Made by a program: the position numbers and the translations under genes. A stretch of 64,000 nucleotides of DNA from Elusimicrobiota bacterium (GTDB taxonomy: Bacteria; Elusimicrobiota; Elusimicrobia; UBA1565; UBA9628), in contig JACRDN010000019.1 of the NCBI GenBank assembly GCA_016218575.1, positions 124,001 through 188,000 on the forward strand, in the 5' to 3' direction. The notes beneath the pieces were generated by a model. It was given only the letters and a program-made list of their open reading frames with translations. It was not told where the DNA came from and ran no database searches. Below are positions 15,510 to 28,168 of the stretch, in pieces; the stretch's first letter is position 1, and each line of letters begins with the position of its first letter.

Positions 15510-16361
15510 ATGGGGCTCGACACGATGAGCGCGCCTTTTTTCTCCCGCCGCGGCCTTTGGGTCCTGGCCCTGGCCGGCCTCTCGGGCCTGGCCTGCGGCC
15601 GCAAGGAGCCGCTCGTGGCCACGGTCGGGCCCCTTAAAATCACGCGCGCGGAGTTCCGCAGGAAGCTCGCCGAGGTCGCGGAGAACTACCAAAACTACGT
15701 CCTTACGCCCAATGGGCGGCGGCAATTTCTCGACATCCTCATCCGGGAGAAGCTGATCCTGGCCGCGGCCCGGGCCTCCGACGTGCCGAAATCCCAGGAA
15801 TTCCTCGCGCAGATGGAGCGCTTGAGGGCCGACGAGGAGGAGCGCCTGCGCGAGGGCAAGGAGTACCTCCTCACCCGCCTGTGGCTCGAGGAACTGCGCG
15901 CCAAGGGAGTCCTCAAGGCCGGCGAGGAGGACGCGCGCGACTACCACCGCCGGCATCCCGTTGAGGTGCAGGTCCGCCATATTCTCCTGGCCACCCCCGA
16001 GGAGGCCGAGGTCGCGGCCAAGAAGGCCAGGGGGGGCGCCAACTTCGCCATGCTCGCCAAGAGCAAGTCCCTGGACTCGGCCACGGCGTCCGACGGCGGC
16101 AGGATGCGCTCATCCCTTTTCGGGGAGGTCATTCCCGAGCTCGAGGACGTGGTATTCCGCACGAAAGTGGGGGAAATCAGCGGGCCCATCAAGAGCAAGT
16201 TTGGCTATCACGTGCTCAAGAAGGAGGGGGAGAGAAGGCTCTCATTTGCGGAGGCGCGGGAGCGCATCGAGCGCCTCTTGGAGAAGCAGAAGCTCGACCG
16301 GCACCTGCAGTCGGTCCAGGAGAAATTCCCAGTGGAGGTTTTGGATGAAGAATTCAAGTAG
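15510..16361 (+). CDS. Parvulin-type peptidyl-prolyl isomerase lipoprotein
   Basis: This is a SurA/PrsA-like foldase for exported proteins. An ATG at 15510 gives 283 residues; an internal ATG at 15525 gives a cleaner signal peptide ending in lipobox LSGLAC and may be the true start. After the lipidated cysteine comes a helical chaperone part, then a PpiC rotamase domain (VQVRHILLATPEEAE, then FGEVIPELEDVVF and GPIKSKFGYHVLK). A helical tail follows. It lies 4 bases after mfd, and its 3' end overlaps the second foldase gene by 17 bases, making a foldase pair in an operon leading to pdxA. Confidence 0.92.
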   Translation: MGLDTMSAPFFSRRGLWVLALAGLSGLACGRKEPLVATVGPLKITRAEFRRKLAEVAENYQNYVLTPNGRRQFLDILIREKLILAAARASDVPKSQEFLAQMERLRADEEERLREGKEYLLTRLWLEELRAKGVLKAGEEDARDYHRRHPVEVQVRHILLATPEEAEVAAKKARGGANFAMLAKSKSLDSATASDGGRMRSSLFGEVIPELEDVVFRTKVGEISGPIKSKFGYHVLKKEGERRLSFAEARERIERLLEKQKLDRHLQSVQEKFPVEVLDEEFK

Positions 16362-17415
16362 CCGCGCGCTTCTGGCGTTCCTGGCCCTATGCCCGGCCGG
16401 GCTTTCGGCCAAGGTGATGGAGGACACGGTGGCCGTGGTCAATGGCTCGCCCATCCTCTTGTCCGAGTACCAGAAGGCCCTGGCCAGCGCCATGCAGTAC
16501 TGGAACAGCGAGGCCCCCGATGCCATGCGCGACCCCGCCAATCTCAAAAAGCTCCGGGAGACCACCCTTGAGCAGCTCATTGACCAGGAGGTTATGTCCC
16601 AAGAGGCGGACAAAAAAGGGATCAAGGTGCGGGAGCGCGACGTGGAGAACGGAGAGGCCGAAATCAAGCAGCGATTCCCCAGCGAGGAGGAGTTCAAGAA
16701 ACAGTTGGAAAGGGACGGGATCACCTACTCTCAGTTCACGGAAAGGCTCAAGAAGCAGATCAAGGCCCGCAAGCTCATCGAGGAGGCGGTGCGCCCCAAG
16801 GTCAAGGTGCCCGAGGAGAAGGAGTCCAAGGCCTACTTCGAAAGGGTCCTGGCCCATTTGAAGACCGGCTCGGCCTCGGCCCCCAAGGGCCTAAGCGATG
16901 AGGAGGCCCAGGCCTTCCTGCAGGTGGCCCAGGCCGTGAAGCTCAAGAGCTCCGAGAGCGTAGAGATCTCCCAAATCCTCATTAAGGTCTCGCCCAAGCC
17001 ATCCGAGGCGGAGAAGAAGAGGGCCCTCAAGACCGCCATAGACATCCACAAGAGGCTCTCGGCCAAGCCGGAGAGCTTCGAGGAGATCGCCGCGGCCGAG
17101 TCCGAGGACCCGGAGAGCGCGGCCCAGGGCGGCCGGATTCCCAAGGAGGTTTACCGCGGCATGCTTCCCCCTGCCATGGAGAAGGCCGCCTTCGCTTTGC
17201 CCGTAGGCGGGGTCAGCGAGCCAATCCTGAGCGATTTCGGCTACCAGATCCTCAAGCTCAGGGGCAAGAAGGCGGCCCAGCAGCCCAATTTCGCTGATTT
17301 CAAGGATGACCTCTCCAAGTTCCTCTCCGATGTCGGCTTTCAGAAGGAGCTGGAGGCCTACGTCAAATCCTTGAAGGGCAAGGCCGTTGCCGAGCGCCAT
17401 CTTCCCGCACTCTAA
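16345..17415 (+). CDS. surA: SurA-like periplasmic chaperone/peptidyl-prolyl isomerase
   Basis: This 356-residue protein has a signal peptide (MKNSSSRALLAFLALCPAGLSA), the SurA_N opening DTVAVVNGSPILLSEY, a long helical chaperone region, and one PpiC domain near the C-terminus (SVEISQILIKV, then GVSEPILSDFGYQILKL). SurA escorts outer-membrane proteins to the BAM complex. The next gene is pdxA, and surA-pdxA adjacency is also known in Proteobacteria, which supports the name. ATG 16345 overlaps the upstream foldase by 17 bases. Only one rotamase domain is present, unlike E. coli SurA with two. Confidence 0.9.
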   Translation: MKNSSSRALLAFLALCPAGLSAKVMEDTVAVVNGSPILLSEYQKALASAMQYWNSEAPDAMRDPANLKKLRETTLEQLIDQEVMSQEADKKGIKVRERDVENGEAEIKQRFPSEEEFKKQLERDGITYSQFTERLKKQIKARKLIEEAVRPKVKVPEEKESKAYFERVLAHLKTGSASAPKGLSDEEAQAFLQVAQAVKLKSSESVEISQILIKVSPKPSEAEKKRALKTAIDIHKRLSAKPESFEEIAAAESEDPESAAQGGRIPKEVYRGMLPPAMEKAAFALPVGGVSEPILSDFGYQILKLRGKKAAQQPNFADFKDDLSKFLSDVGFQKELEAYVKSLKGKAVAERHLPAL

Positions 17416-18343
17416 GCCGGTCCTGGCTTTCACCTGCGGCGATCCCGCGGGGATAGGGGCCGCGGCCGTTCTCGGGGCCCTGCGCTCCGGAAATTTGCGC
17501 CGGCGCTGCGTTCCCCTTCTGGTCGGTGAGCGTCGAGTCTGGAAGAGGGCGGGCTGGCGGCCGGGTCTAGCCCAAATCCTGAGCCCGGGCCTGCCGGCGG
17601 CGAGCCTTCCTCCTTATGGGCGCGCAAGTGCTGCGGGAGGCGCCAGCTCGTTCTCGGCTTTGCGCTTGGCCTTGCGCCTGGCCGTCCGTGGCCTTGTGTC
17701 GGGCATCGTCACGGCTCCCATTTCCAAGGAAGCCTGGGATTTGGCGGGAATCCCGTACCGGGACCATACCGAGTTTTTTAGGGAGAAGACCAAGGCCGAC
17801 GTCCAGATGGCGCTGGGTATTCCCCGCCTCAAACTTTGGTGCCTCACCGCGACCCGCCACGTCCCGTTGAGAAAAGTTCCGCGGGCGCTCAAGGCTGTCT
17901 CTCTAGCCCAAGCCGCCCGTGCCTTGAAGAGGGCCTTGGGCCTTCTGGGCCTGGCGCGGCCGCGCCTGGGGCTGTGCGCCCTCAATCCCCATGCCGGCGA
18001 GGAGGGACTCTTGGGCGCCGAGGAAGGCCGGATTCTGGCCCCCGCGGTCCTGAGTGCTCGGCGCTCGGGAGTGGATATCACAGGCCCCATCGCGGCCGAC
18101 ACGGCCTGGCGCTGGCACCGCGAGGGGAAATTGGACGGCTTGGTCTGCCTTTACCACGACCAGGCCCTCATCCCCCTCAAGGTCGCGGCGGGGCTAGAGG
18201 CGGTCAACTGGACGCTGGGGCTTCCCTTCGTCCGGACCTCTCCAGGGCACGGGACGGGCTTCGACATCGCGGGGCGCTCTAGGCCCGACTGCCGCGCCAC
18301 CATGGCCGCGGCCGAGCTCGCGGCCTTCCTCTGCCGAGTCTAG
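17387..18343 (+). CDS. pdxA: 4-hydroxythreonine-4-phosphate dehydrogenase
   Basis: PdxA makes 3-amino-2-oxopropyl phosphate for pyridoxal phosphate synthesis. The 318-residue protein carries the family motifs GDPAGIG, TAPISKEA, DHTEFF, LNPHAGEEGLLG, GPIAADT, YHDQALIPLK and RTSPGHGTGFDIAG. The start appears to be TTG 17387, inside the end of surA (29-base overlap); no ATG or GTG lies between it and the conserved FTCGDPAGIG, so the exact start is uncertain. It ends the foldase operon and overlaps the convergent small gene at its 3' end. Confidence 0.95.
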   Translation: MPSAIFPHSKPVLAFTCGDPAGIGAAAVLGALRSGNLRRRCVPLLVGERRVWKRAGWRPGLAQILSPGLPAASLPPYGRASAAGGASSFSALRLALRLAVRGLVSGIVTAPISKEAWDLAGIPYRDHTEFFREKTKADVQMALGIPRLKLWCLTATRHVPLRKVPRALKAVSLAQAARALKRALGLLGLARPRLGLCALNPHAGEEGLLGAEEGRILAPAVLSARRSGVDITGPIAADTAWRWHREGKLDGLVCLYHDQALIPLKVAAGLEAVNWTLGLPFVRTSPGHGTGFDIAGRSRPDCRATMAAAELAAFLCRV

Positions 18344-18699
18344 GAGGAGCGGCCTCTTCCGGCCAGGCCCTTCTTGTCGAGTTCTTCGACGATGCAGCGC
18401 GTGGTCACCTTGTCGAGGCGGTCGAATTCCTCATCGGTCAGGTAGCGGTAGCTCCAGATGGGGATGGCCCCGCAGTCGATCTTGGCGCCCGAGCTGACTT
18501 TTTTTAGGAAAGCCCGCGTGTTGCAGAGGGTCTTCTTCTGCTTTTCCGAGAGCTTGCCGAAATTCTGCCGAGTGACTTGCGATTTCGACTGGGCTAACGA
18601 GGCGTAGTCCGTGTCGTTCAACTCGCAGGCGCGGGCCGGAGCCGCCGCCGATAGGGCCAGGCAGGCCGCGAAAAGGGCCGCGCGCGGGATTTTATTCAT
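18340..18699 (-). CDS. Small secreted protein, unknown function
   Basis: This 119-residue protein has a clear signal peptide (MNKIPRAALFAACLALSAAAPARA). The mature part is mostly helical and polar with cysteines in ACELND, LCNT, DCGA and RCIV, so two disulfides are possible. I do not recognise the family. The start at 18699 is set by the signal peptide and a promoter (TTGATT, 17 bases, TATCCT) whose -10 box ends 7 bases before the ATG. A longer frame upstream lacks a signal. Its -35 box abuts that of the divergent TPR-kinase gene, suggesting shared regulation. The first 12 bases are identical to the start of the other small secreted gene (25446, minus), on the other side of the kinase block. 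Confidence 0.7.
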   Translation of the reverse strand: MNKIPRAALFAACLALSAAAPARACELNDTDYASLAQSKSQVTRQNFGKLSEKQKKTLCNTRAFLKKVSSGAKIDCGAIPIWSYRYLTDEEFDRLDKVTTRCIVEELDKKGLAGRGRSS

Positions 18700-18706
18700 G
18701 AGCCAG

Positions 18707-18752
18707 AGGATAGCCCCCCTTGCTTGACAAATCAAGTGGTGGGGGATAAACT
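18707..18752. promoter_or_regulatory. Back-to-back promoters sharing a CTTGACAAATCAAG palindrome
   Basis: Plus strand: TTGACA (18724-18729), 17 bases, TAAACT (18747-18752), serving the kinase at 18764. Minus strand: TTGATT (18735-18730), 17 bases, TATCCT (18712-18707), serving the small secreted gene. The two -35 boxes abut and form the near-palindrome CTTGACAAATCAAG. The same 14 bases recur upstream of the second kinase (21133-21146). Confidence 0.7.
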
Positions 18753-18763
18753 GGAGCCACCCA

Positions 18764-21121
18764 ATGAGGAAATGCCTTCTTCTTCTTTTTCTGGGCTTGG
18801 GCCCGCCCTCCGCTTTCGCCGAGAGCCGCGAGAAAATCGTGGATTCCACCATCCAGGAGATAGTGGACAAGAAGGAGAATCCAGGGCTCTACCAGGCCGT
18901 CAAGGCTGTGGTCTTAAAGAACCTCGGGCAATTGCCGCCCGAGCCCAAGCCCGGCGCTTCCGAGCAGGACCGGGAGCGGTATAAAGAGGCCATGCGCTCC
19001 CTCCTCACCAAGAAGCTCGACGTGGAGCCCGTGGACTCGGAGGACCTCCAAGACATCAATCAGGAAGAGCTGTTTCGCGCGGCCCATAACGTGATGACCC
19101 ATCTGGCCCGGACCCTCGTTCCCCCGCAGGAGGTCAAGCCCCAGCCCACCGAGGCCGGCGATCCCGGGGCCAAGGCCCGCGTCATCGTTTCCGAGGTCGA
19201 GGCCCAGAAAAAGCCCAACGACCCCGAAGCCCAGAGGGACCTGGGGCTGGTCTACTATTGGCAGGGGCGTTTCCGGGAGGCCCACCGCAGGCTTGCCCGG
19301 GCCATCCAACTGGGCGGCGGCGACGCCGAGACCTTGGCGGCCTACGGGAGCGCTGCGTATTCCCTCGGCGACTACGAGCAGGCCGAGGAGGCCGCCAAGC
19401 TCGCCCTTCAAAAAGACCCTGAAAACAAGACGGCCCTGGCTCTGGCCAACCTTGCCCGGGGGAAAGTTTCCTCGGCCCGTCTGCCCTCGGCCATGGAGGA
19501 CGAGTCCAGCGGAGTGCTCTGGGAGGGGGGAGGGGATCCCAGGACCGCGGCCGAGATCGCGGCCCAGGCCGGGCGCCCCGCGCCCGCCTCGGGCGCCCAC
19601 CAGTCGGCCGCCGTGACCTTGGAGGCCGCCTCGGCCTTGGCCATCAAGGACTACGCCTCGGCCCATGCCTTGGCCTCCAAGGCCATCGAGCTCAACTCTG
19701 GCAACGCGCAGGCCTGGAATTATCGGGCCATCGCGGACAACAAGCTCGGGCGCTACGGCGAGGCGGTTTATGACGCGAGTTTTTCCTTGAGCCTGGTCCC
19801 GGGAAGCGCTGCCGCCCTTCAGACCAGGTCCTGGGCCTTCAGCAAGCAGAAAAGGTATCAGGAAGCCTTGGCCGATGCCAACGCGACCTTGGAAAGCGAG
19901 CCCGGCAATGGTTTTGCCTACCAGAACCGGGCTTTTGCCTTGGCGGGGCTGGGGGACAGGGCGGGGGTCCTGGAGTCCTTGCGGCTCTCGGCCGAACTCG
20001 ATGCGCGTTTTAAGCCTAGATATGAGGGAGCTTCGCAGGCCCCCGATGGGGCTGATCTGCTGTATCTTTTCGACGAGGCGCCGGCCTCTCGGCAAAAGCC
20101 CGCGCCCGTCCCCGTTCCCGCGAGCTCGCGCAATCGGCGCTTCTTGCGCCTGCTCATCCTCTCCGTGAGCGGAGGGATCCTCACGGCCCTGGCTTTCCTG
20201 AACATCCTTTCCTCCGCCTGGCGCGAAAGGGCGCGAGCCACGCTGCGTCGGGTCCTGGGGGCCTCGCCGGCCGCGGATAAGCTCGGGGTAAAAGCCCGCA
20301 GTGGAGGAAAATTTCACTCCCAGTACGAAATTATTCGGAGCATCGGCTCTGGCGGGATGGGAATGGTTTACGAGGCCCGGGATAAGGCTCTCGACCGCCG
20401 CGTGGCCGTCAAGAAGATGCGCGAGGAGATACGCGCTAGCCCCGTGGAGCGGCGCCATTTCGTGACCGAGGCTCGGACCGTGGCTGCCCTGCATCACCCG
20501 CACATCGTGGATATCTACGCCATTGTCGAGGACCAGGACGAGGTCTATCTCATCTTCGAGTACGTGGCGGGCAAGACCTTGGCCGACTGGATCGACGAGA
20601 AGGGGGGCCTTTCCTACGGGGAGGCCTGCCGCATACTGGAGGGTGCCTGCCAGGCCGTCGAGTACGCGCACCGACAGAAGGTGATCCATCGGGATCTCAA
20701 GCCCTCCAACATCATGGTGACCGAGGACGGCCAGGCCAAGGTCATGGACTTCGGTGTGGCCCGCCAGGCCAAGGAGGCTCTGACCAAGCTTTCCATGACC
20801 GGGACCATAGTGGGCACGCCTCCGTACATGGCACCTGAGCAGGAGCAGGGAGCGGTTTGCAAGGAGTCCGATCTCTTCGCCTTGGGCGTCTGCTTCTACG
20901 AGATGCTTTCCGGAAGCCTTCCCTTCGCCGGCCAGGGCGCGGGGCTTCTCTTGAACAAACTCAACGGCAAGCACATTCCCATCACCCAGGCCGCGAAAAA
21001 CGGCCTGCCCGCCGGGCTCGACGCAGTCCTCTCCAAGGCCCTGCATCCCGATCCCCGGAAGCGTTATGCGAGCCCCTCCGAGCTGTGGGAGGCCGTCTCA
21101 ATCTTAAAAAACGGTAAATAA
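18764..21121 (+). CDS. TPR-transmembrane-Ser/Thr protein kinase
   Basis: This 785-residue protein combines four parts. A signal-like N-terminus (MRKCLLLLFLGLGPPSAFA) is followed by a helical region and TPR repeats (about 140-430; for example ETLAAYGSAAYSLGDYEQAEEAAKLAL). One membrane helix (about 459-481) leads to a complete Hanks-type kinase (about 519-783). Kinase motifs: GSGGMGMVYEA, VAVKK (about 550), HRDLKPSN (about 640), MDFGVAR and GTPPYMAPEQ. The expected topology is TPR outside the cytoplasmic membrane and kinase inside, the reverse order of PknB-type PASTA kinases. The ligand and substrate are unknown. The promoter leaves a leader of only about 5 bases. A paralogue with the same layout follows 47 bases downstream. 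Confidence 0.93.
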   Translation: MRKCLLLLFLGLGPPSAFAESREKIVDSTIQEIVDKKENPGLYQAVKAVVLKNLGQLPPEPKPGASEQDRERYKEAMRSLLTKKLDVEPVDSEDLQDINQEELFRAAHNVMTHLARTLVPPQEVKPQPTEAGDPGAKARVIVSEVEAQKKPNDPEAQRDLGLVYYWQGRFREAHRRLARAIQLGGGDAETLAAYGSAAYSLGDYEQAEEAAKLALQKDPENKTALALANLARGKVSSARLPSAMEDESSGVLWEGGGDPRTAAEIAAQAGRPAPASGAHQSAAVTLEAASALAIKDYASAHALASKAIELNSGNAQAWNYRAIADNKLGRYGEAVYDASFSLSLVPGSAAALQTRSWAFSKQKRYQEALADANATLESEPGNGFAYQNRAFALAGLGDRAGVLESLRLSAELDARFKPRYEGASQAPDGADLLYLFDEAPASRQKPAPVPVPASSRNRRFLRLLILSVSGGILTALAFLNILSSAWRERARATLRRVLGASPAADKLGVKARSGGKFHSQYEIIRSIGSGGMGMVYEARDKALDRRVAVKKMREEIRASPVERRHFVTEARTVAALHHPHIVDIYAIVEDQDEVYLIFEYVAGKTLADWIDEKGGLSYGEACRILEGACQAVEYAHRQKVIHRDLKPSNIMVTEDGQAKVMDFGVARQAKEALTKLSMTGTIVGTPPYMAPEQEQGAVCKESDLFALGVCFYEMLSGSLPFAGQGAGLLLNKLNGKHIPITQAAKNGLPAGLDAVLSKALHPDPRKRYASPSELWEAVSILKNGK

Positions 21122-21133
21122 GCCGGGCTTGCC

Positions 21134-21162
21134 TTGACAAATCAAGGGGGGCCCCCTACACT
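21134..21162 (+). promoter_or_regulatory. Promoter of the second TPR-kinase
   Basis: TTGACA (21134-21139), 17-base spacer, TACACT (21157-21162), then 6 bases to GTG 21169. The -35 region reads CTTGACAAATCAAG, identical to that of the first kinase gene. Confidence 0.7.
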
Positions 21163-21168
21163 CTCGTT

Positions 21169-23694
21169 GTGAGGATGATCCTCGCCGCCTTTCTGATGGT
21201 GGCGCTCCCGGCTTGCGCGGGGGCCGACGAGCCGATGGTCTGCGGAAAGGACGCCCGCTCCTGCGGCCGCCACGATCACCAGGAGCCTCCCGCCGCGCCG
21301 GACTTGCCGGCCGAGCCGCCCGAAGACCACCGCAAAGGCGACGAGGACGAACTCCTGCCCTTGAAACCCGAGCAGAAGGCCCTCCTCGAGGTGAAATGGC
21401 CCGGGACCTTTGAAAAATTCCACAGGGTCATGCATGAGTTGGTCGACAATCTTCCCGGCCAGGACTCGCGGCGCAGGTATAAGCCCACCATCATCACCGA
21501 GGTGAACCATATCCTGATGGTCGCGGCCCAGTACGTTAAGCTGGAGGACGATTTCAAAAATCGCGTCATTTCCGCCCAGTCCCACGACAGTCTGCTGGAG
21601 AAATACCGCGGCCAAATGGAAAAATCCGGGGAGAGATTGGATCATTTGCCGCTGCCGCGCCATGAGCGGGGCCTAGCCGGCGCGGGGCCCGGCTGGGGAG
21701 ACCCTCGCGGGCACGAGGCCAATCCGGCCAGCGTCCATAACATAGTGATGAAGGCGGGGTTGGATTCCATCATGAACAGCGTCATCGGCGCCAAGAACCA
21801 CGCCGACCATACCATCCACAACAACCCGCCCAACCCTTACAATTGGTCCCAAGGCGGGGACGCCTACTTGAAGGAGGGCGATGCCAAGAAGGCCGTGGAG
21901 TATTACACCAAGGCGATCCAATTGGACCCCGGCCATTTCGAGGCCTTAAAGGGCCGGGCGGCCGCGCAGTACGAGCTCAAGAATTACCGCGAGGCCTCCC
22001 AGGACGCCAAGGCCGCCTTGAAAATCGATCCCTCGGATTCCCAGGCCCTGGCCTTGGCCCAGCTTTCCCACGAGGTGGGGGGCAAGGCCCCCTCCGGCGC
22101 CGCGGTCCCGGCTTGGAATTCTTCAGAGTCCCAAGACGGCGCGCCGGGAGAAGGCTTCGGCGGTCTCGCGGCTTCCCCCAAGGCGGCCGCGGCGGCGGAG
22201 ACGCCTGTGGTCCTGGCCCAATCAGCGCGCTATGCTCAGCAGGCCAGGCACTCTTTGGGTCTCGGCGACTACCAGGACGCGATCGCCCAGGCCACTCGGG
22301 CGATCGAGCTTAACGCCATGAACGCCCAGGCCCTGTACATGCGCTCGGCGGCCTACGCCAAAACCCGTCTCTATGACAAGGCCTCGGAGGACGCGGAGGC
22401 GGGACTCAAGCTCGATCCCAAGAACGGACCCCTTCTCGACGCCAAGGCGGCGGCCTTGAACCGCCTCAAGCGCTACCGGGAGGCCCTGCAGGCGGCCAAC
22501 GCGGCCCTGGAGGTCAACCCCAAGGACGCCGCGGCCCATTACCTGCGGGCCATGGCCTTGGCGGGTTTGGCAGAGAGGGACCCCATGCAGGAGTCCCTAA
22601 AGGCGGCCGCGGCCCTCGACCCCCGCTATGGGCCGATTCTCGAAGCCGCCCTCCAGCTTCCCGAGGACGCGGACCTGCTCTTCTTATTCCCGGAGGAGGG
22701 CCGAGCCGCCCCTCGCTCGGCTCCCGCCCGTCGCTCTCGGCTGGTCCTCGTCGCCTTGGCCGTCGCGGCCGGCGCTCTCCTGCTCGCCTTCGGCGCGGCG
22801 CCGTTTTTCATGCCGTCGCTCAGGACCCGTATCCAGACCGGACGCTGGCCGAACGCCCGCCCTCCTGAGCCCGGCGTGATCGGCGGCCAGTACCGGCTCT
22901 CGCGCCAGATCGGGATCGGGGGCATGGGCCAGGTTTACGAGGGGACCGATGTCTCCCTGAACCGCCGGGTGGCGGTCAAGCGCATGAGGGAGGAACTGCG
23001 CCAGGATCCGCGCGAGCGCGAGCGCTTTTTGAGCGAGGCCCGCCTTGTCGCGGCCCTCCATCACCCTCATATCGTGGACATTTACGCCATCGTGGAGGAC
23101 CAAGAGGAGGTGTATCTCATCTTCGAGTTCGTGCCCGGCAAGACCGTCTACGACTTGGCGGGGGCCCATGGGCGCCTGGACTGGTCTCAGACTTTGGAGA
23201 TACTGCGCGGCGTGGCCGAGGCCTTGGATTACGCGCACTCCCGCAGGGTCATCCACCGCGATCTCAAGCCGTCCAACATCATGGTGACGCAAGACGGCCA
23301 GGCCAAGGTCATGGATTTCGGCATCGCCCGCATGGCCAAGGACGCGGCCAGCCGCCGCTCGCTCACCAACACCGTCGTGGGCACGCCTCCCTACATGGCT
23401 CCGGAGCAGGAGCAAGGCGAGGTGGGCCGGGCCGCCGACATCTATTCCCTCGGCGTCTGCCTCTACGAGATGCTTTCGGGTCAGATGCCCTTCCAGGGGA
23501 GCGGCGCGGGCATGTTCCTCAACAAGGTGCAGAAGAACTACACGCCCTTGACCAAGGCCGCTTCGGGCCTGCCCGAGGGCCTCGACGAGGTCCTGGCCAA
23601 GGCCTTGGACCCCGACCCCGGCCGGCGCTTTGCGAGCGCCGGGGAGCTCATGGCCGCCTTGGAGGATCTTTCCCCCGGCCGCGTTTTGGGCTGA
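21169..23694 (+). CDS. TPR-transmembrane-Ser/Thr protein kinase, paralogue 2
   Basis: This 841-residue paralogue has the same layout as the kinase upstream. A signal peptide (MRMILAAFLMVALPACAGA) precedes a His/Asp/Glu-rich helical region, TPR repeats (about 220-505; GDAYLKEGDAKKAVEYYTKA, LGDYQDAIAQATRAIEL), one membrane helix (about 524-547) and a C-terminal kinase (about 574-835). Kinase motifs are GIGGMGQVYEG, VAVKRM, HRDLKPSN (about 694), DFGIAR and GTPPYMAPEQ. Both kinases share the juxtamembrane D-R-Y segment followed by DADLLFLF, and the string LHHPHIVDIYAIVEDQ, so they arose by duplication. GTG 21169 is chosen because a -10 box ends 6 bases before it. Each gene having its own promoter suggests separate control. 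Confidence 0.92.
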   Translation: MRMILAAFLMVALPACAGADEPMVCGKDARSCGRHDHQEPPAAPDLPAEPPEDHRKGDEDELLPLKPEQKALLEVKWPGTFEKFHRVMHELVDNLPGQDSRRRYKPTIITEVNHILMVAAQYVKLEDDFKNRVISAQSHDSLLEKYRGQMEKSGERLDHLPLPRHERGLAGAGPGWGDPRGHEANPASVHNIVMKAGLDSIMNSVIGAKNHADHTIHNNPPNPYNWSQGGDAYLKEGDAKKAVEYYTKAIQLDPGHFEALKGRAAAQYELKNYREASQDAKAALKIDPSDSQALALAQLSHEVGGKAPSGAAVPAWNSSESQDGAPGEGFGGLAASPKAAAAAETPVVLAQSARYAQQARHSLGLGDYQDAIAQATRAIELNAMNAQALYMRSAAYAKTRLYDKASEDAEAGLKLDPKNGPLLDAKAAALNRLKRYREALQAANAALEVNPKDAAAHYLRAMALAGLAERDPMQESLKAAAALDPRYGPILEAALQLPEDADLLFLFPEEGRAAPRSAPARRSRLVLVALAVAAGALLLAFGAAPFFMPSLRTRIQTGRWPNARPPEPGVIGGQYRLSRQIGIGGMGQVYEGTDVSLNRRVAVKRMREELRQDPRERERFLSEARLVAALHHPHIVDIYAIVEDQEEVYLIFEFVPGKTVYDLAGAHGRLDWSQTLEILRGVAEALDYAHSRRVIHRDLKPSNIMVTQDGQAKVMDFGIARMAKDAASRRSLTNTVVGTPPYMAPEQEQGEVGRAADIYSLGVCLYEMLSGQMPFQGSGAGMFLNKVQKNYTPLTKAASGLPEGLDEVLAKALDPDPGRRFASAGELMAALEDLSPGRVLG

Positions 23695-23728: not shown

Positions 23729-24850
23729 ATGCTCGAGACAGCGGTAGATTTAACCTCGGTCGCCCGGCAGTTCCGCTTTCCGGGCCGTTTGGTCACCATC
23801 CAGCCCTTGGGTTCCGGGAACGTCAACGATACCTTTCTGGCGGTGTTTCGCACCCCCTTCTCGGAGGAGCGCGGCATCGTGCAGAGGATCAACCTCAGGG
23901 TTTTTAAGAACCCAGCCTGGATCATGGAGAATATGCGGGTGGTCACCGAGCACGTCCACCGCAAAGTGGAGCGGGAGGCCGATGAGGCGGACCGGATCTG
24001 GCAACTCCCGCGCCTGGTCTCGACGCGGGACGGCAGGGATTTCCACCTGGACGAGGAGGGGGGGCATTGGCGCGCCATGACCGTGATCGCCTCGGCCGTT
24101 TCCCATGACTGCGCCCAGGGCCCCGAGCACGCCTTGGAGGCCGGCTGCGTCTTGGGGCAGTTCCATCGCCTCCTCTCGGACCTCGACCCTTCGCGTCTGC
24201 GCGATACCTTGCCCAATTTCCATGTGACCCCGGCCTATCTCAAGGCTTACGATGAAGTTCTCAACGACCGGGCCGGGGGAGAGAGGCTCAAGTCCTCGGA
24301 CGAGGCCAAGCGCCTGGCACGCTTCATTGAAGGCCGCCGAAAGCTCTCGGGGGTTCTGGAGTCGGCCCTGGAGCGCGGCGAGCTTCGACTGAGGCTCATC
24401 CACGGGGACCCCAAGCTCAACAATATCATGATAGACGAGCTCACGGGCAAGGGCACGAGCATAGTGGATTTGGACACGGTCAAGCCCGGCCTCATCCACT
24501 ATGATTTCGGCGACGCTTTGCGCTCGGCCTGCAACCCGGTGGGGGAAGAGGCTCGCGATCTTTCGACTGTGGCCTTCGACGTGGACCTTTGCGAGGCCTT
24601 CATCCAGGGCTACATGTCCCAGGCCAAGGAGTTCCTGAGCGAGGCCGACCGCGACTACCTCTACGACTCGATCCGCCTCATCGCCTTCGAGCTCGGCCTG
24701 CGCTTCTTCCAGGATTACCTCGCCGGCGACGTCTACTTCAAGGTGCGCTACCCCGAGCACAACTTGAACCGCGCCCGGGTCCAGTTCCGCCTCTGCGAGT
24801 CCATCGAGGCCCGCGAGGGCCTCATCCGCAAGACCCTTGCGCGGTTCTAG
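23729..24850 (+). CDS. APH-fold phosphotransferase, N-acetylhexosamine 1-kinase-like
   Basis: This 373-residue protein has the aminoglycoside phosphotransferase fold. GSGNVNDTFL forms the nucleotide loop, HGDPKLNNIM (His225-Asp227) is the catalytic loop and IVDLDTVKPGLIHYDFGD is the metal-binding segment. The combination GN-NDT, HGD-K-NN and DLDTV-PG matches NahK-type anomeric sugar kinases rather than antibiotic-modifying enzymes. The substrate is therefore probably a hexosamine or another small molecule, but this is an inference. The start is placed by a TATAAT box 8 bases before the ATG. It follows the second TPR-kinase but has its own promoter, and overlaps the convergent small gene by 4 bases. 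Confidence 0.8.
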   Translation: MLETAVDLTSVARQFRFPGRLVTIQPLGSGNVNDTFLAVFRTPFSEERGIVQRINLRVFKNPAWIMENMRVVTEHVHRKVEREADEADRIWQLPRLVSTRDGRDFHLDEEGGHWRAMTVIASAVSHDCAQGPEHALEAGCVLGQFHRLLSDLDPSRLRDTLPNFHVTPAYLKAYDEVLNDRAGGERLKSSDEAKRLARFIEGRRKLSGVLESALERGELRLRLIHGDPKLNNIMIDELTGKGTSIVDLDTVKPGLIHYDFGDALRSACNPVGEEARDLSTVAFDVDLCEAFIQGYMSQAKEFLSEADRDYLYDSIRLIAFELGLRFFQDYLAGDVYFKVRYPEHNLNRARVQFRLCESIEAREGLIRKTLARF

Positions 24851-25446
24851 AAGACGCCGCTGGGGGCCTTGCAGGGGAGTTCGATTTTGTGAATGGCCGC
24901 GCGGGTGTTCATCTCCTGTCGGATGCGCTGGCCGAGCTCATCAAGATAAACCTGAAGCTGAGCCCGATCCTCCTGCCAGGCGGCAAGAATGAGGATTCTC
25001 CTTGCGGCCGCGGTTTTATCCGCATCCGAGGAATTGTACTTTTCTTCAAAATACCAAGAATTTCTGATCAGCTTATCTCTGATCCTTCTTCTTTCATGGG
25101 CAAGCGCTTTGCTGGAGTTATTGAGCTTGGCCAGCAGAGTTTCCGCCTTGGCCCGAAAGGCGTCATAGTCGGAGATTGGAATCTTCTGCGTCTGGCCGAA
25201 TGATTTTTGAATCTTGAAAAACTCGGCTTCCTGCTCGGAGCGCGCCTTCGCGGCTGTCTCCTTTATCTGGCAGCGCTCATCCCCAGTGAATCTCTTGTCG
25301 GCCTCGGTCCAGCCGGATTCGCATTTGTGCGCCTCGATTTTGGCCGCGATGTCCGCTTCGGTTGGCCGAATCGCGAAGACGGGCCGGACCGAGGTCGCGG
25401 AGACGGTCGCGGCGAGCAGGGCAAGGAACGGCTTGATTTTATTCAT
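24847..25446 (-). CDS. Secreted helical protein, unknown function
   Basis: This 199-residue protein has a signal peptide (MNKIKPFLALLAATVSATSVRPVFA). The mature part is polar, Lys/Glu/Ala/Arg-rich and predicted helical, with three cysteines (KCESG, RCQIK and PCKAP). No known motif is seen. The first 12 bases of the gene (ATGAATAAAATC) match those of the small secreted gene at 18699, although the proteins are not clearly homologous. It closes the kinase block on the right and converges on the sugar-kinase gene with a 4-base overlap. No convincing -35/-10 pair is found; TAACCT lies 6 bases before the ATG. Confidence 0.65.
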   Translation of the reverse strand: MNKIKPFLALLAATVSATSVRPVFAIRPTEADIAAKIEAHKCESGWTEADKRFTGDERCQIKETAAKARSEQEAEFFKIQKSFGQTQKIPISDYDAFRAKAETLLAKLNNSSKALAHERRRIRDKLIRNSWYFEEKYNSSDADKTAAARRILILAAWQEDRAQLQVYLDELGQRIRQEMNTRAAIHKIELPCKAPSGVF

Positions 25447-25697: not shown

Positions 25698-25961
25698 CTA
25701 GGCGTCGATCACTTTCAGGGACTCGATGACGGAGGGGTTCTTGCTGGGAAGGCAAATGACGCGGTCCCTGCCGTATTCCCGGCGCAGCGCGCTCAACACT
25801 TCGTCGAGCCAGGACGGGCCCACCGAGAGCACCCCCTCGAAATCGAGCTCTATTTTTTCGTTCCCGGCCGGTCTCTGGTAGGCCTTCATCGCGAGAGCCG
25901 CCTCCTTCCCGGCGGGCCGCGACGTCAGAATCTCCCCGTATTTCTTCACCTTTATCTTCAT
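25698..25961 (-). CDS. STAS-like domain protein (DUF4325 type)
   Basis: This 87-residue protein (MKIKVKKYGEILTSRPAGKEA) matches the STAS-like DUF4325 pattern: a short strand-helix start, then IELDFEGVLSVGPSWLDEVLSAL, then the closing strand and helix with NPSVIESLKVI. Such domains resemble anti-sigma-factor antagonists. The ATG at 25961 shares its A with the last base of the upstream ATPase stop (TAATG), so translation is coupled. The partner is therefore very probably the GHKL ATPase, forming a switch like SpoIIAB/SpoIIAA. Whether a serine is phosphorylated is unknown. An upstream in-frame extension lies wholly within the ATPase gene and is rejected. Confidence 0.75.
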   Translation of the reverse strand: MKIKVKKYGEILTSRPAGKEAALAMKAYQRPAGNEKIELDFEGVLSVGPSWLDEVLSALRREYGRDRVICLPSKNPSVIESLKVIDA

Positions 25962-26710
25962 TATAGGCTCCAAGCGATCAAAGTGATCGTGCCTTCCGAG
26001 TCGGGCAGACTTTCCAGTTCCCTTTCGCAATCCGGGCCAAGCGGCCCGTAATTCACAATGCCCTTTCCCGATCGGCAGGCCAGTCCCCGGCGGCCGCCTC
26101 CCGTCATTATATTTTTAACAAACTTCAAGCCGTTTCCCCTATTTTCAGGAGCCCGCCCGGAAATGGTTCTCTCGAACGCGGCGACGAGGGCGCTTTGCTC
26201 GTCCTTGAGCTCGGGGGCGACCCGCGCCAGGGAACGCCATATCCCCTGCCCGCGATCCGCGATGCAGACCCACTGTTTGCCGACGGCGGCTTGGGCTTGG
26301 TGCCAGCATCCCGGCACGTCCCGCCATTGGCCGAGGTTGTGATCGTAGCAGTTGTTCCCGACTTCGCCGACGGCCGAGATGAGGAGGGGTAAATCGGCGC
26401 CTTTGAGCTGGCTCAAGCGGGCCGAAAAAACGTCACGGGTCTCGCAGATGAACTCGGCGGGGCTTTCGTCCGGGCGGCCCGCCGCGGCGTACCAACGCAT
26501 GGCTCTTTCCAGGTCGGGGCGCCCGGCCAAGAAATAGCGGGTTAGGGGTCCGCGGCCGCGGGACTCAAGCGCGCCTTCGGCCAAAAGGCGCTTGAGATGG
26601 CGGTGGATGGCTTGGGGGGTGATTTTCAACCGATGGACCAAAGTGATCGGTCTCGTGGCCCCTTCCTCTTCTATGATTTTTATAATTTTGGACCGCGTTT
26701 CTCCCTTCAT
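25961..26710 (-). CDS. Winged-helix/GHKL-ATPase regulator
   Basis: This 249-residue protein has an N-terminal winged helix-turn-helix (about 1-65; TRPITLVHRLKITPQAIHRHLKRLLAEG), a linker, and a HATPase_c domain (about 105-249). The N box is AVGEVGNNCYDHN, G1 is DRGQGIW and G2 is NRGNGLKFVKNI. There is no histidine-kinase dimerisation domain, so it resembles an anti-sigma kinase fused to a DNA-binding domain. It forms a two-gene operon with the STAS-like protein. The ATG at 26710 lies at the edge of a 33-bp AT-rich palindrome (26709-26741), the likely autoregulatory operator. It is divergent from ssrA. Confidence 0.85.
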   Translation of the reverse strand: MKGETRSKIIKIIEEEGATRPITLVHRLKITPQAIHRHLKRLLAEGALESRGRGPLTRYFLAGRPDLERAMRWYAAAGRPDESPAEFICETRDVFSARLSQLKGADLPLLISAVGEVGNNCYDHNLGQWRDVPGCWHQAQAAVGKQWVCIADRGQGIWRSLARVAPELKDEQSALVAAFERTISGRAPENRGNGLKFVKNIMTGGGRRGLACRSGKGIVNYGPLGPDCERELESLPDSEGTITLIAWSL

Positions 26711-27163: not shown

Positions 27164-28168
27164 ATGGATGAGATGGCTCCGGCCCAGTCGGCGTCGGCGC
27201 CCGAGGCGCCGCACTCTGGAAACCGGCGCGTCAAGCGCCGGCTCATGTATTTTCTGGTCGCGCTCTACGGCCTGTCCTTGGCCGCGGCCGCCTTCCTGAT
27301 CCTGCGCTCCCAGGCACCCAAGGCCGCGCCCGAGTCCGACTCGGGCGGGCTTCTGTCGTTGTCGCAGAGGGATTCAGTCGGCTGGGTGAGCATCCGCGGC
27401 CCCATCTACACCGCCGAGGGCGGCAAGATATGGGAGAAGGGCGTGGACCAGTGGGCCCGGCGCATCCGGGCCTTGGCCGAGACCAAGGGCGTCAAGGCCA
27501 TAGTCCTCGACATCAACTCCCCCGGCGGGAGCGTGGGGGCGGTGCAGGAGCTCTACAGCCAGATCCAGCGCGTGCGCCAGGAAAAGCGCATCCCCTTCGT
27601 GGCCCTCTTCGGCGACGTCTCGGCCTCGGGCGGCTACTACATCGCCATGGCCTGCGACAAGATCGTGGCCCACCCCGGGACCTTGACTGGCTCCATCGGC
27701 GTGATCTTCTCGGTGGGCAACCTGGAGGGGCTTTTCCAGAAAATCGGCTACAAGGTGGACCCCATCAAATCCGGCAAGCACAAGGACATCGGCTCGCCCG
27801 CCCGCCCCATGACCAAGGAGGAGCGCGGCATCCTGCAAGCCGTGATCGACGACGCCTACAAGCAGTTCCTGGCCGCGGTGAGCCAGGGCCGGCATATCCC
27901 CGAAGATCAGCTGCGTCCCCTGGCCGACGGTCGTATCTTCTCGGGGCGGCAGGCCCTTGCGGCCCATCTCGTGGACATGGTGGGCGATTCCGTGGACGCT
28001 TTGGAGCTGGCGGGAAAGCTTGCCGGCATCAAGGGCCGACCCAAGATCAAGCGCGACACCGACAGGCTGAGCGGCATCGTGGAAATGCTCGACTCGCGCT
28101 GGCATGGCCTCCTTTCCGGCCTCCCCTTCGCCTACCAGGGCCTCGAGTACCGCTGGCCGGGACTCTAG
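27164..28168 (+). CDS. sppA: Signal peptide peptidase SppA (short, S49 family)
   Basis: This 334-residue membrane serine protease degrades cleaved signal peptides. It has a membrane helix at about residues 26-48 and an S49 domain with LDINSPGGSVG, DVSASGGYYIA (catalytic Ser155), TGSIGVI and the catalytic lysine in SGKHKDIGS (Lys205). The length and single catalytic domain match the Bacillus-type short form. The ATG at 27164 is only 7 bases beyond the last base of the tmRNA stem and no promoter or terminator lies between. Transcription from the ssrA promoter, with tmRNA 3' processing, is therefore likely. A second ATG at 27170 cannot be excluded. Confidence 0.92.
   Translation: MDEMAPAQSASAPEAPHSGNRRVKRRLMYFLVALYGLSLAAAAFLILRSQAPKAAPESDSGGLLSLSQRDSVGWVSIRGPIYTAEGGKIWEKGVDQWARRIRALAETKGVKAIVLDINSPGGSVGAVQELYSQIQRVRQEKRIPFVALFGDVSASGGYYIAMACDKIVAHPGTLTGSIGVIFSVGNLEGLFQKIGYKVDPIKSGKHKDIGSPARPMTKEERGILQAVIDDAYKQFLAAVSQGRHIPEDQLRPLADGRIFSGRQALAAHLVDMVGDSVDALELAGKLAGIKGRPKIKRDTDRLSGIVEMLDSRWHGLLSGLPFAYQGLEYRWPGL

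What the first reader, a model, noticed from the sequence alone, without database searches (positions are those of the whole stretch)
18764..23694. Tandem kinases with an outside TPR sensor and a C-terminal cytoplasmic kinase
Both proteins read signal peptide, TPR array, one membrane helix, complete Hanks-type kinase. This reverses the common bacterial order (kinase N-terminal, sensor C-terminal, as in PknB). TPRs usually bind peptides, so an extracytoplasmic TPR could sense envelope protein fragments or a partner lipoprotein. Motifs show both kinases are intact. They sit between two small secreted proteins, one sharing a divergent promoter with the first kinase. Inference: an envelope-sensing phosphorylation system in which the secreted proteins could be ligands.
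Basis: partly seen in the sequence, partly recalled or inferred. Interest (0 to 1): 0.75.

Follow-up and report, generated by a model that had tools for sequence, protein, structure and literature searches.

The report
Receptor kinases with secreted partner gene
Two neighbouring bacterial genes encode cell-surface receptors built like plant and animal receptor kinases (sensor outside, kinase inside); the layout recurs across the phylum Elusimicrobiota, and the first gene shares a two-way promoter with a gene for a fast-changing secreted protein that, in related genomes, is found only beside such receptors and is therefore a candidate ligand or regulator.

Summary
K1 (18764-21121) and K2 (21169-23694) each read signal peptide, TPR arrays, one membrane helix, complete Hanks-type kinase. 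The layout is not a local oddity: six of the genome's eight kinases have it, and it recurs across Elusimicrobiota, with up to 22 K1-like matches per genome. I found no description of it in the literature held. The nearest studied relative in kind, PknS of Xanthomonas citri, has the mirror order (kinase, TM, periplasmic TPR).

New points. (1) The small secreted gene at 18340-18699(-) looked orphan to sequence search, but a profile places it in a fast-evolving family. All 21 strong genome-wide hits that could be checked lie divergently beside a TPR kinase, including eight not used in training and several paralogous loci. (2) K1 and this gene share a palindromic divergent promoter with overlapping -35 boxes. 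K2 and many homologues look leaderless, which fixes the start codon at the signal peptide. (3) The kinase pair sits behind two SurA/PpiC-type chaperone genes and pdxA in about 30 loci, often with an SppA-type peptidase downstream.

The other flanking secreted gene (24847-25446) is unsupported as a partner. Best reading: envelope-sensing receptor kinases with a dedicated periplasmic regulator. Ligand, substrate and activity are untested.

The parts
15510..16361 (+). PpiC-type periplasmic peptidyl-prolyl isomerase / SurA-like chaperone (conserved neighbour)
   Evidence: Pfam Rotamase E 5e-16 and SurA_N_3; conserved upstream of the kinases
16345..17415 (+). SurA-type chaperone, PPIase (conserved neighbour)
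   Evidence: Pfam Rotamase E 4e-22, SurA_N families; ATG at 16345; conserved
17387..18343 (+). PdxA (conserved neighbour directly upstream)
   Evidence: Pfam PdxA E 4e-78; conserved adjacency
18340..18699 (-). Small secreted helical protein, 119 aa: divergently encoded partner of kinase 1, member of a fast-evolving kinase-linked family
   Evidence: Signal peptide by eye; leave-one-locus-out profile hit E 8.5e-8; 23/23 family hits beside TPR kinases; genome-wide 21/21; AF2 pLDDT 79.7, all helical
18707..18752 (.). Bidirectional promoter: palindrome CTTGACAAATCAAG (18723-18736) holds both -35 boxes; K1 -10 TAAACT 18747-18752; partner-gene -10 (reverse strand TATCCT) 18712-18707
   Evidence: Sequence; exact K1 promoter match
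18764..21121 (+). Kinase 1 (K1), 785 aa: SP-variable domain-TPR-TM-Ser/Thr kinase
18764..18820 (+). K1 signal peptide MRKCLLLLFLGLGPPSAFA
   Evidence: sequence; 76 of 88 homologues score as signal peptides against 8 of 89 controls
18821..19198 (+). K1 N-terminal helical domain (aa 20-145), the least conserved part
   Evidence: conservation profile; mean pairwise distance 0.86
19199..19468 (+). K1 TPR array 1 (aa 146-235)
   Evidence: Pfam TPR; AF2
19601..20038 (+). K1 TPR array 2 (aa 280-425), the best conserved ectodomain part
   Evidence: Pfam TPR_17; AF2; conservation
20042..20071 (+). Conserved ectodomain exit motif PxxxDLLxLF before the Pro-rich stalk
   Evidence: conservation
20138..20206 (+). 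K1 transmembrane helix (aa 459-481) with conserved GG motif
   Evidence: hydropathy, AF2, G470 nearly invariant
20324..21088 (+). K1 cytoplasmic Hanks-type kinase domain
   Evidence: Pfam E 1.5e-55; nearest solved folds PknB/PknA of M. tuberculosis
21133..21162 (+). K2 promoter: same palindrome CTTGACAAATCAAG (21133-21146), -10 TACACT 21157-21162, predicted leaderless start
21169..23694 (+). Kinase 2 (K2), 841 aa: SP-TPR-TM-Ser/Thr kinase
22741..22797 (+). K2 transmembrane helix
   Evidence: hydropathy 2.63
22891..23634 (+). K2 kinase domain
   Evidence: Pfam E 9e-57
27164..28168 (+). SppA-type membrane peptidase S49 (conserved downstream neighbour in several relatives)
   Evidence: Pfam Peptidase_S49 E 4e-48; similar gene downstream in L040, L041, L058, L075, L078, L082

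Best explanation
K1 and K2 are single-pass (type I) receptor Ser/Thr kinases of a large Elusimicrobiota family. The signal peptide sends the N-terminal variable domain and TPR superhelix outside the inner membrane; a stalk and one TM helix link them to a cytoplasmic PknB-like kinase. The divergently encoded small secreted helical protein (18340-18699) is a dedicated periplasmic partner of K1. Made from an overlapping promoter, it most likely binds the K1 ectodomain (variable domain or TPR groove) and sets its on/off state. The likely cue is the state of envelope proteins, because the genes sit with SurA/PpiC chaperones and an SppA peptidase. Signal probably changes dimerisation, leading to trans-autophosphorylation of the T-loop and phosphorylation of cytoplasmic targets, reset by the genome's Stp1-type PP2C. 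Shown: domain order, motifs, promoter, conservation, gene pairing. Inferred: topology (strongly), binding, cue, sign of regulation, targets.
For: Domain order and intact motifs and structure model. Same order in six of eight own kinases, in nearly all kinase ORFs of the Elusimicrobiota loci, and in a genome whose single contig is 1,643,562 bp, which from memory is the size of cultured Elusimicrobium minutum. K1 homologues in 166 of 190 good Elusimicrobiota genomes (the more distant ones match in the kinase domain only). Partner family: window member recovered by a profile trained on other loci at E 8.5e-8 among 7,891 ORFs; 23 of 23 members in fetched loci and 21 of 21 evaluable strong hits in 57 whole genomes lie divergently beside a TPR kinase, eight of the latter outside the training set. 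Divergent secreted small ORFs at 31 of 97 kinases against 34 of 600 random positions. Chaperone synteny in about 30 loci and S49 peptidase downstream. One Stp1/IreP PP2C in the genome.
Against: No binding or activity data. The mirror-tree test of partner against ectodomain is inconclusive (N-terminal domain partial r 0.16, permutation p 0.056; TPR parts none). Many TPR kinases, including K2, have no detectable partner gene. Chaperone synteny is confined to the window's family: kinases sampled in other families, including the E. minutum-like one, are not beside surA/pdxA. Basic residues flank the TM on both sides.
Confidence: 0.5

Rival explanations
1. The kinases are receptors, but the small secreted protein is not their ligand or regulator: it is an output, a secreted effector or envelope protein co-transcribed for the same stress response.
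For: Shared overlapping promoter alone would give this. The coevolution test is inconclusive. Many kinases, K2 among them, lack the gene.
Against: The small gene follows kinase paralogues to other contigs and other loci without the chaperone genes, as expected for a physical partner rather than a shared regulon member.
Confidence: 0.25
2. The TPR ectodomain senses chaperone clients or outer-membrane precursors directly (SurA-linked envelope stress), and the small protein is a decoy or accessory that keeps the groove shut, comparable in logic to sigma-E or Cpx accessory proteins.
For: PpiC-SurA-PdxA-kinase order in about 30 loci; S49 peptidase downstream. TPR superhelices usually bind peptides or helices (general knowledge). 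In PknS the periplasmic TPR region keeps the kinase off without a cue (PMC13147305).
Against: surA-pdxA neighbours are old, widespread housekeeping neighbours (general knowledge), so the kinases may just have inserted there; the order is not kept outside the family sampled.
Confidence: 0.3
3. The ectodomain serves assembly or localisation (scaffold) and not sensing; kinase activity is constitutive or controlled from the cytoplasm.
For: TPRs are often scaffolds; TPR array 2 is better conserved than the N-terminal part.
Against: The fast-evolving N-terminal domain and a dedicated secreted partner fit recognition better.
Confidence: 0.15

Closest known systems
PknS (XAC4127) of Xanthomonas citri (PMC13147305)
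   Same: Transmembrane Hanks-type kinase with a periplasmic TPR domain that controls autophosphorylation
   Different: Order is mirrored (kinase N-terminal, TPR C-terminal, no N-terminal signal peptide); acts on an ECF43 sigma factor; no divergently encoded secreted partner is reported in the passages read
PASTA kinases PknB / StkP / PrkC
   Same: Kinase domain is nearest to these by sequence and fold; single TM, external sensor; PP2C partner
   Different: Kinase N-terminal, PASTA sensor C-terminal; NCBIfam PASTA-kinase score far below its cut-off (284.8 against 450)
Plant and animal receptor kinases (RLK / RTK, with secreted peptide ligands)
   Same: Order signal peptide, ectodomain, TM, cytoplasmic kinase; possible small secreted ligand
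   Different: TPR rather than LRR or Ig ectodomain; kinase is of bacterial PknB type; resemblance is convergent
Chlamydia PknD and other bacterial TPR kinases surveyed in PMC1262709
   Same: Kinase plus TPR-like repeats
   Different: The Chlamydia example is kinase-first with a C-terminal TPR-like region; the survey predates these genomes

Membership tests
Hanks-type (PknB-like) Ser/Thr kinases | Complete kinase domain with catalytic motifs | tested here: met
   Pfam PF00069 full length in both; HRDLKPSN, DFG, APE present
Hanks-type (PknB-like) Ser/Thr kinases | Kinase activity | not testable with these tools
   needs a biochemical assay
PASTA receptor kinases (Stk1/PknB) | C-terminal extracellular PASTA repeats | tested here: not met
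   no PASTA match; NF033483 284.8 bits against cut-off 450, kinase part only
PknS-type TPR receptor kinases | N-terminal kinase, TM, periplasmic C-terminal TPR | tested here: not met
   order is reversed in K1, K2 and homologues
Elusimicrobiota SP-TPR-TM-kinase family (defined here) | Signal peptide, TPR, single TM, C-terminal kinase, alignable along the ectodomain | tested here: met
   53 aligned members: Pkinase in 53, TPR_2 in 51; alignments commonly run from about aa 140 to 780
Small secreted kinase-partner family (defined here) | Profile match and divergent adjacency to a TPR kinase | tested here: met
Receptor-ligand pair | Secreted protein binds the ectodomain and changes kinase state | not testable with these tools
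   the structure tool folds one chain only; no binding data

The most novel reading that the evidence does not exclude
A phylum-wide bacterial counterpart of receptor-kinase / secreted-ligand pairs: each kinase of one clade carries its own fast-evolving secreted ligand gene on an overlapping divergent promoter, and paralogous pairs were duplicated together to give a set of private receptor-ligand channels that read envelope state or neighbouring cells.
Probability: 0.3. Interest if true: 0.8.

Novelty: new variant of a known kind. Interest (0 to 1): 0.57.

Why it matters
In well-studied bacterial receptor Ser/Thr kinases the sensor is C-terminal, and ligands are known for few. Here is a large family in a little-studied phylum with the eukaryote-like order, and a concrete candidate regulator encoded next door that follows the kinase to other loci. 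That makes the question 'what does a TPR ectodomain sense' testable with two small proteins. The E. minutum-like genome shows that a relative probably exists in a cultured strain.

Tried and rejected
Sequence search suggested that the 18340 gene was an orphan and the ligand idea dead; gap-by-gap reading of relatives and profiles overturned that. Orphan 24847-25446 was searched by sequence (no profile was possible) and stayed orphan. Positive-inside charge count as a topology test: uninformative. Palindrome as a kinase-only operator: in the own genome its only two exact copies are at K1 and K2, but in 13 relatives only about 11 of 28 examined sites belong to kinases, the rest to other promoters, so it is probably a strong-promoter form. 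Mirror-tree coevolution: inconclusive. FHA-domain readers in the genome: none found. Fold matches of the small protein: none better than chance. Same architecture outside the phylum: four kinase-rich genomes matched essentially in the kinase part only (all matches begin at K1 aa 418 or later); 141 genomes of the phylum of G303 (reached through a Polyangiaceae/Myxococcota locus) gave nothing at E 1e-60 (an empty answer is weak evidence). One Polyangiaceae kinase is C-terminal after a TM but has no TPR. Literature: searches for this family in Elusimicrobia/Elusimicrobiota gave nothing relevant; one key Elusimicrobia genome paper is not held.

Full report
Observation. The two ORFs at 18764-21121 (K1, 785 aa) and 21169-23694 (K2, 841 aa) are as described. 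Pfam places TPR repeats N-terminal and a full Pkinase domain C-terminal in both; all catalytic motifs are present; hydropathy gives one TM segment directly before the kinase. The AlphaFold2 model of K1 (53-sequence alignment, mean pLDDT 82.9) shows a helical N-terminal region, two TPR superhelices, a disordered stalk, a TM helix and the kinase. The kinase part is closest to M. tuberculosis PknB and PknA by sequence and fold.

Topology. In 88 homologues a crude signal-peptide score passes in 76, against 8 of 89 for start codons inside kinase domains. Charges on the two sides of the TM are equal, so the positive-inside rule does not decide. Independent support comes from promoters: in 29 of 48 homologues with a recognisable TTGACA-N17-TAnAnT promoter the start codon lies 6-8 nt after the -10 box, which predicts leaderless mRNAs and fixes the start at the signal peptide; K2 is one if its GTG (21169) is taken, 6 nt after the -10. 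A cleaved signal peptide plus one TM puts the TPRs outside and the kinase inside. This is strong inference, not proof.

Distribution. The genome is an Elusimicrobiota MAG (2.82 Mb). It has eight Pkinase matches; six have this order, and two are secreted-type kinase-SUMF1 fusions. K1 homologues occur in 56 of 57 relatives, up to 22 matches per genome, and in 166 of 190 good genomes across the phylum at E 1e-20, many of the distant ones as kinase-only matches. A single-contig genome of 1,643,562 bp, which from memory is the size of Elusimicrobium minutum Pei191, carries a shorter version with signal peptide, weak TPRs, TM and kinase. Conservation rises along the chain: N-terminal domain lowest, then TPR1, TPR2, kinase highest. 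Outside the phylum only kinase-domain similarity was seen. So the order that looks reversed is common in this phylum. I found no description of it in the papers held; the nearest published analogue is PknS, with the mirror order.

The divergent secreted gene. A direct search found no relative of the 18340-18699 product in 57 genomes. Reading the gap between pdxA and the first kinase in relatives showed that most hold a small secreted protein on the opposite strand with a shared pattern ([TA]R.[FY]... P ... YL..E). A profile trained without the window's locus recovers the window's protein at E 8.5e-8 among 7,891 small ORFs. With all members, 23 non-redundant hits appear in the fetched loci, and every one is divergent from and next to a TPR kinase. 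Genome-wide in 57 genomes there are 22 hits below 1e-5; 21 have enough flank to judge, and all 21 sit divergently beside a TPR-kinase ectodomain. By my count eight of these are not in the training alignment, and several belong to paralogous kinases on other contigs away from pdxA. As a model-free check, divergent signal-peptide small ORFs occur upstream of 31 of 97 kinases against 34 of 600 random positions. The protein is predicted all-helical (pLDDT 79.7, above 90 for most of aa 51-110), with no Pfam family or known fold and one arginine (R62) invariant in 16 aligned members. The second flanking secreted gene (24847-25446) shows none of this.

Promoter. K1 and the small gene share the palindrome CTTGACAAATCAAG (18723-18736). 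Read one way it holds the K1 -35 (TTGACA, 17 nt, TAAACT); read the other way it holds the -35 of the small gene (TTGATT, 17 nt, TATCCT). The two promoters therefore overlap at their -35 boxes. K2 has the same palindrome at 21133-21146 without a divergent gene. These are the only two exact copies in the genome, but in relatives the element also occurs at other genes, so I do not call it a kinase operator.

Neighbourhood. mfd, a PpiC/SurA-like PPIase, a SurA-type PPIase and pdxA precede the kinase pair; the pdxA-kinase junction recurs in about 30 loci, with SurA and PpiC where the contig reaches, and an S49 (SppA-type) peptidase gene follows the kinases in several. Some of these loci come from the same genome held in two collections, so 30 is a count of loci, not of independent genomes; on the non-redundant tree 23 kinases carry the pdxA label. 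Kinases sampled in other families of the phylum are not beside these genes, so this envelope link is specific to the window's family. On the tree of 110 kinases the pdxA label is clustered, mostly in the K1 clade. The genome has one Stp1/IreP-type PP2C phosphatase beside a CHASE2 protein and no FHA domain.

Interpretation. The best-supported reading is a family of type I receptor kinases whose K1-like clade has a dedicated secreted partner. The co-movement of the small gene with kinase paralogues favours a physical partner over a mere co-regulated output. Whether it activates, inhibits or delivers a cue is open; the published behaviour of the PknS ectodomain (off without cue) makes an inhibitory or threshold-setting role plausible. 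Envelope proteostasis as the cue rests on gene neighbourhood only. The mirror-tree test was inconclusive.

Verdict. Observation confirmed; interpretation partly supported and sharpened. Novelty: a new variant of bacterial receptor Ser/Thr kinases, with an undescribed kinase-linked secreted family as the most interesting part.

Noticed in passing
[quoted passage not shown] a kinase domain behind a possible signal peptide is odd.
   Followed up: no
L099 7256-9322, L100 7404-8948, L101 6271-8319: Three of the six TPR kinases have altered catalytic motifs: HQDLKPSN in two, DFD instead of DFG in one; possible specialised or weak kinases.
   Followed up: no
many kinase loci, e.g. window 21157-21169: 29 of 48 TPR-kinase genes with a clear promoter have the start codon 6-8 nt after the -10 box, predicting leaderless mRNAs.
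   Followed up: partly
L159, L173, L180 and others: The palindromic promoter CTTGACAnnTCAAG also occurs at non-kinase positions in relatives, some without an ORF downstream (RNA genes?).
   Followed up: partly
window 25698-26710 (-): Pair of a winged-HTH protein with a weak HATPase-like match and a STAS-like DUF4325 protein, resembling a partner-switch regulator next to the kinase cluster.
   Followed up: no
L120 7588-11289 and L119 4036-9882: C-terminal kinases in other Elusimicrobiota families: WD40 propeller then TM then kinase in L120 (Pfam-confirmed), and a 1,948-aa protein in L119 whose N-terminal domains were not identified; the same order with other sensor parts.
   Followed up: no
L106 3450-5728: CHASE2-domain protein directly beside the only Stp1-type PP2C phosphatase found in the genome.
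   Followed up: no
window 23729-24850: APH-type phosphotransferase directly downstream of K2; no similar gene found near kinases in relatives by tblastn.
   Followed up: partly
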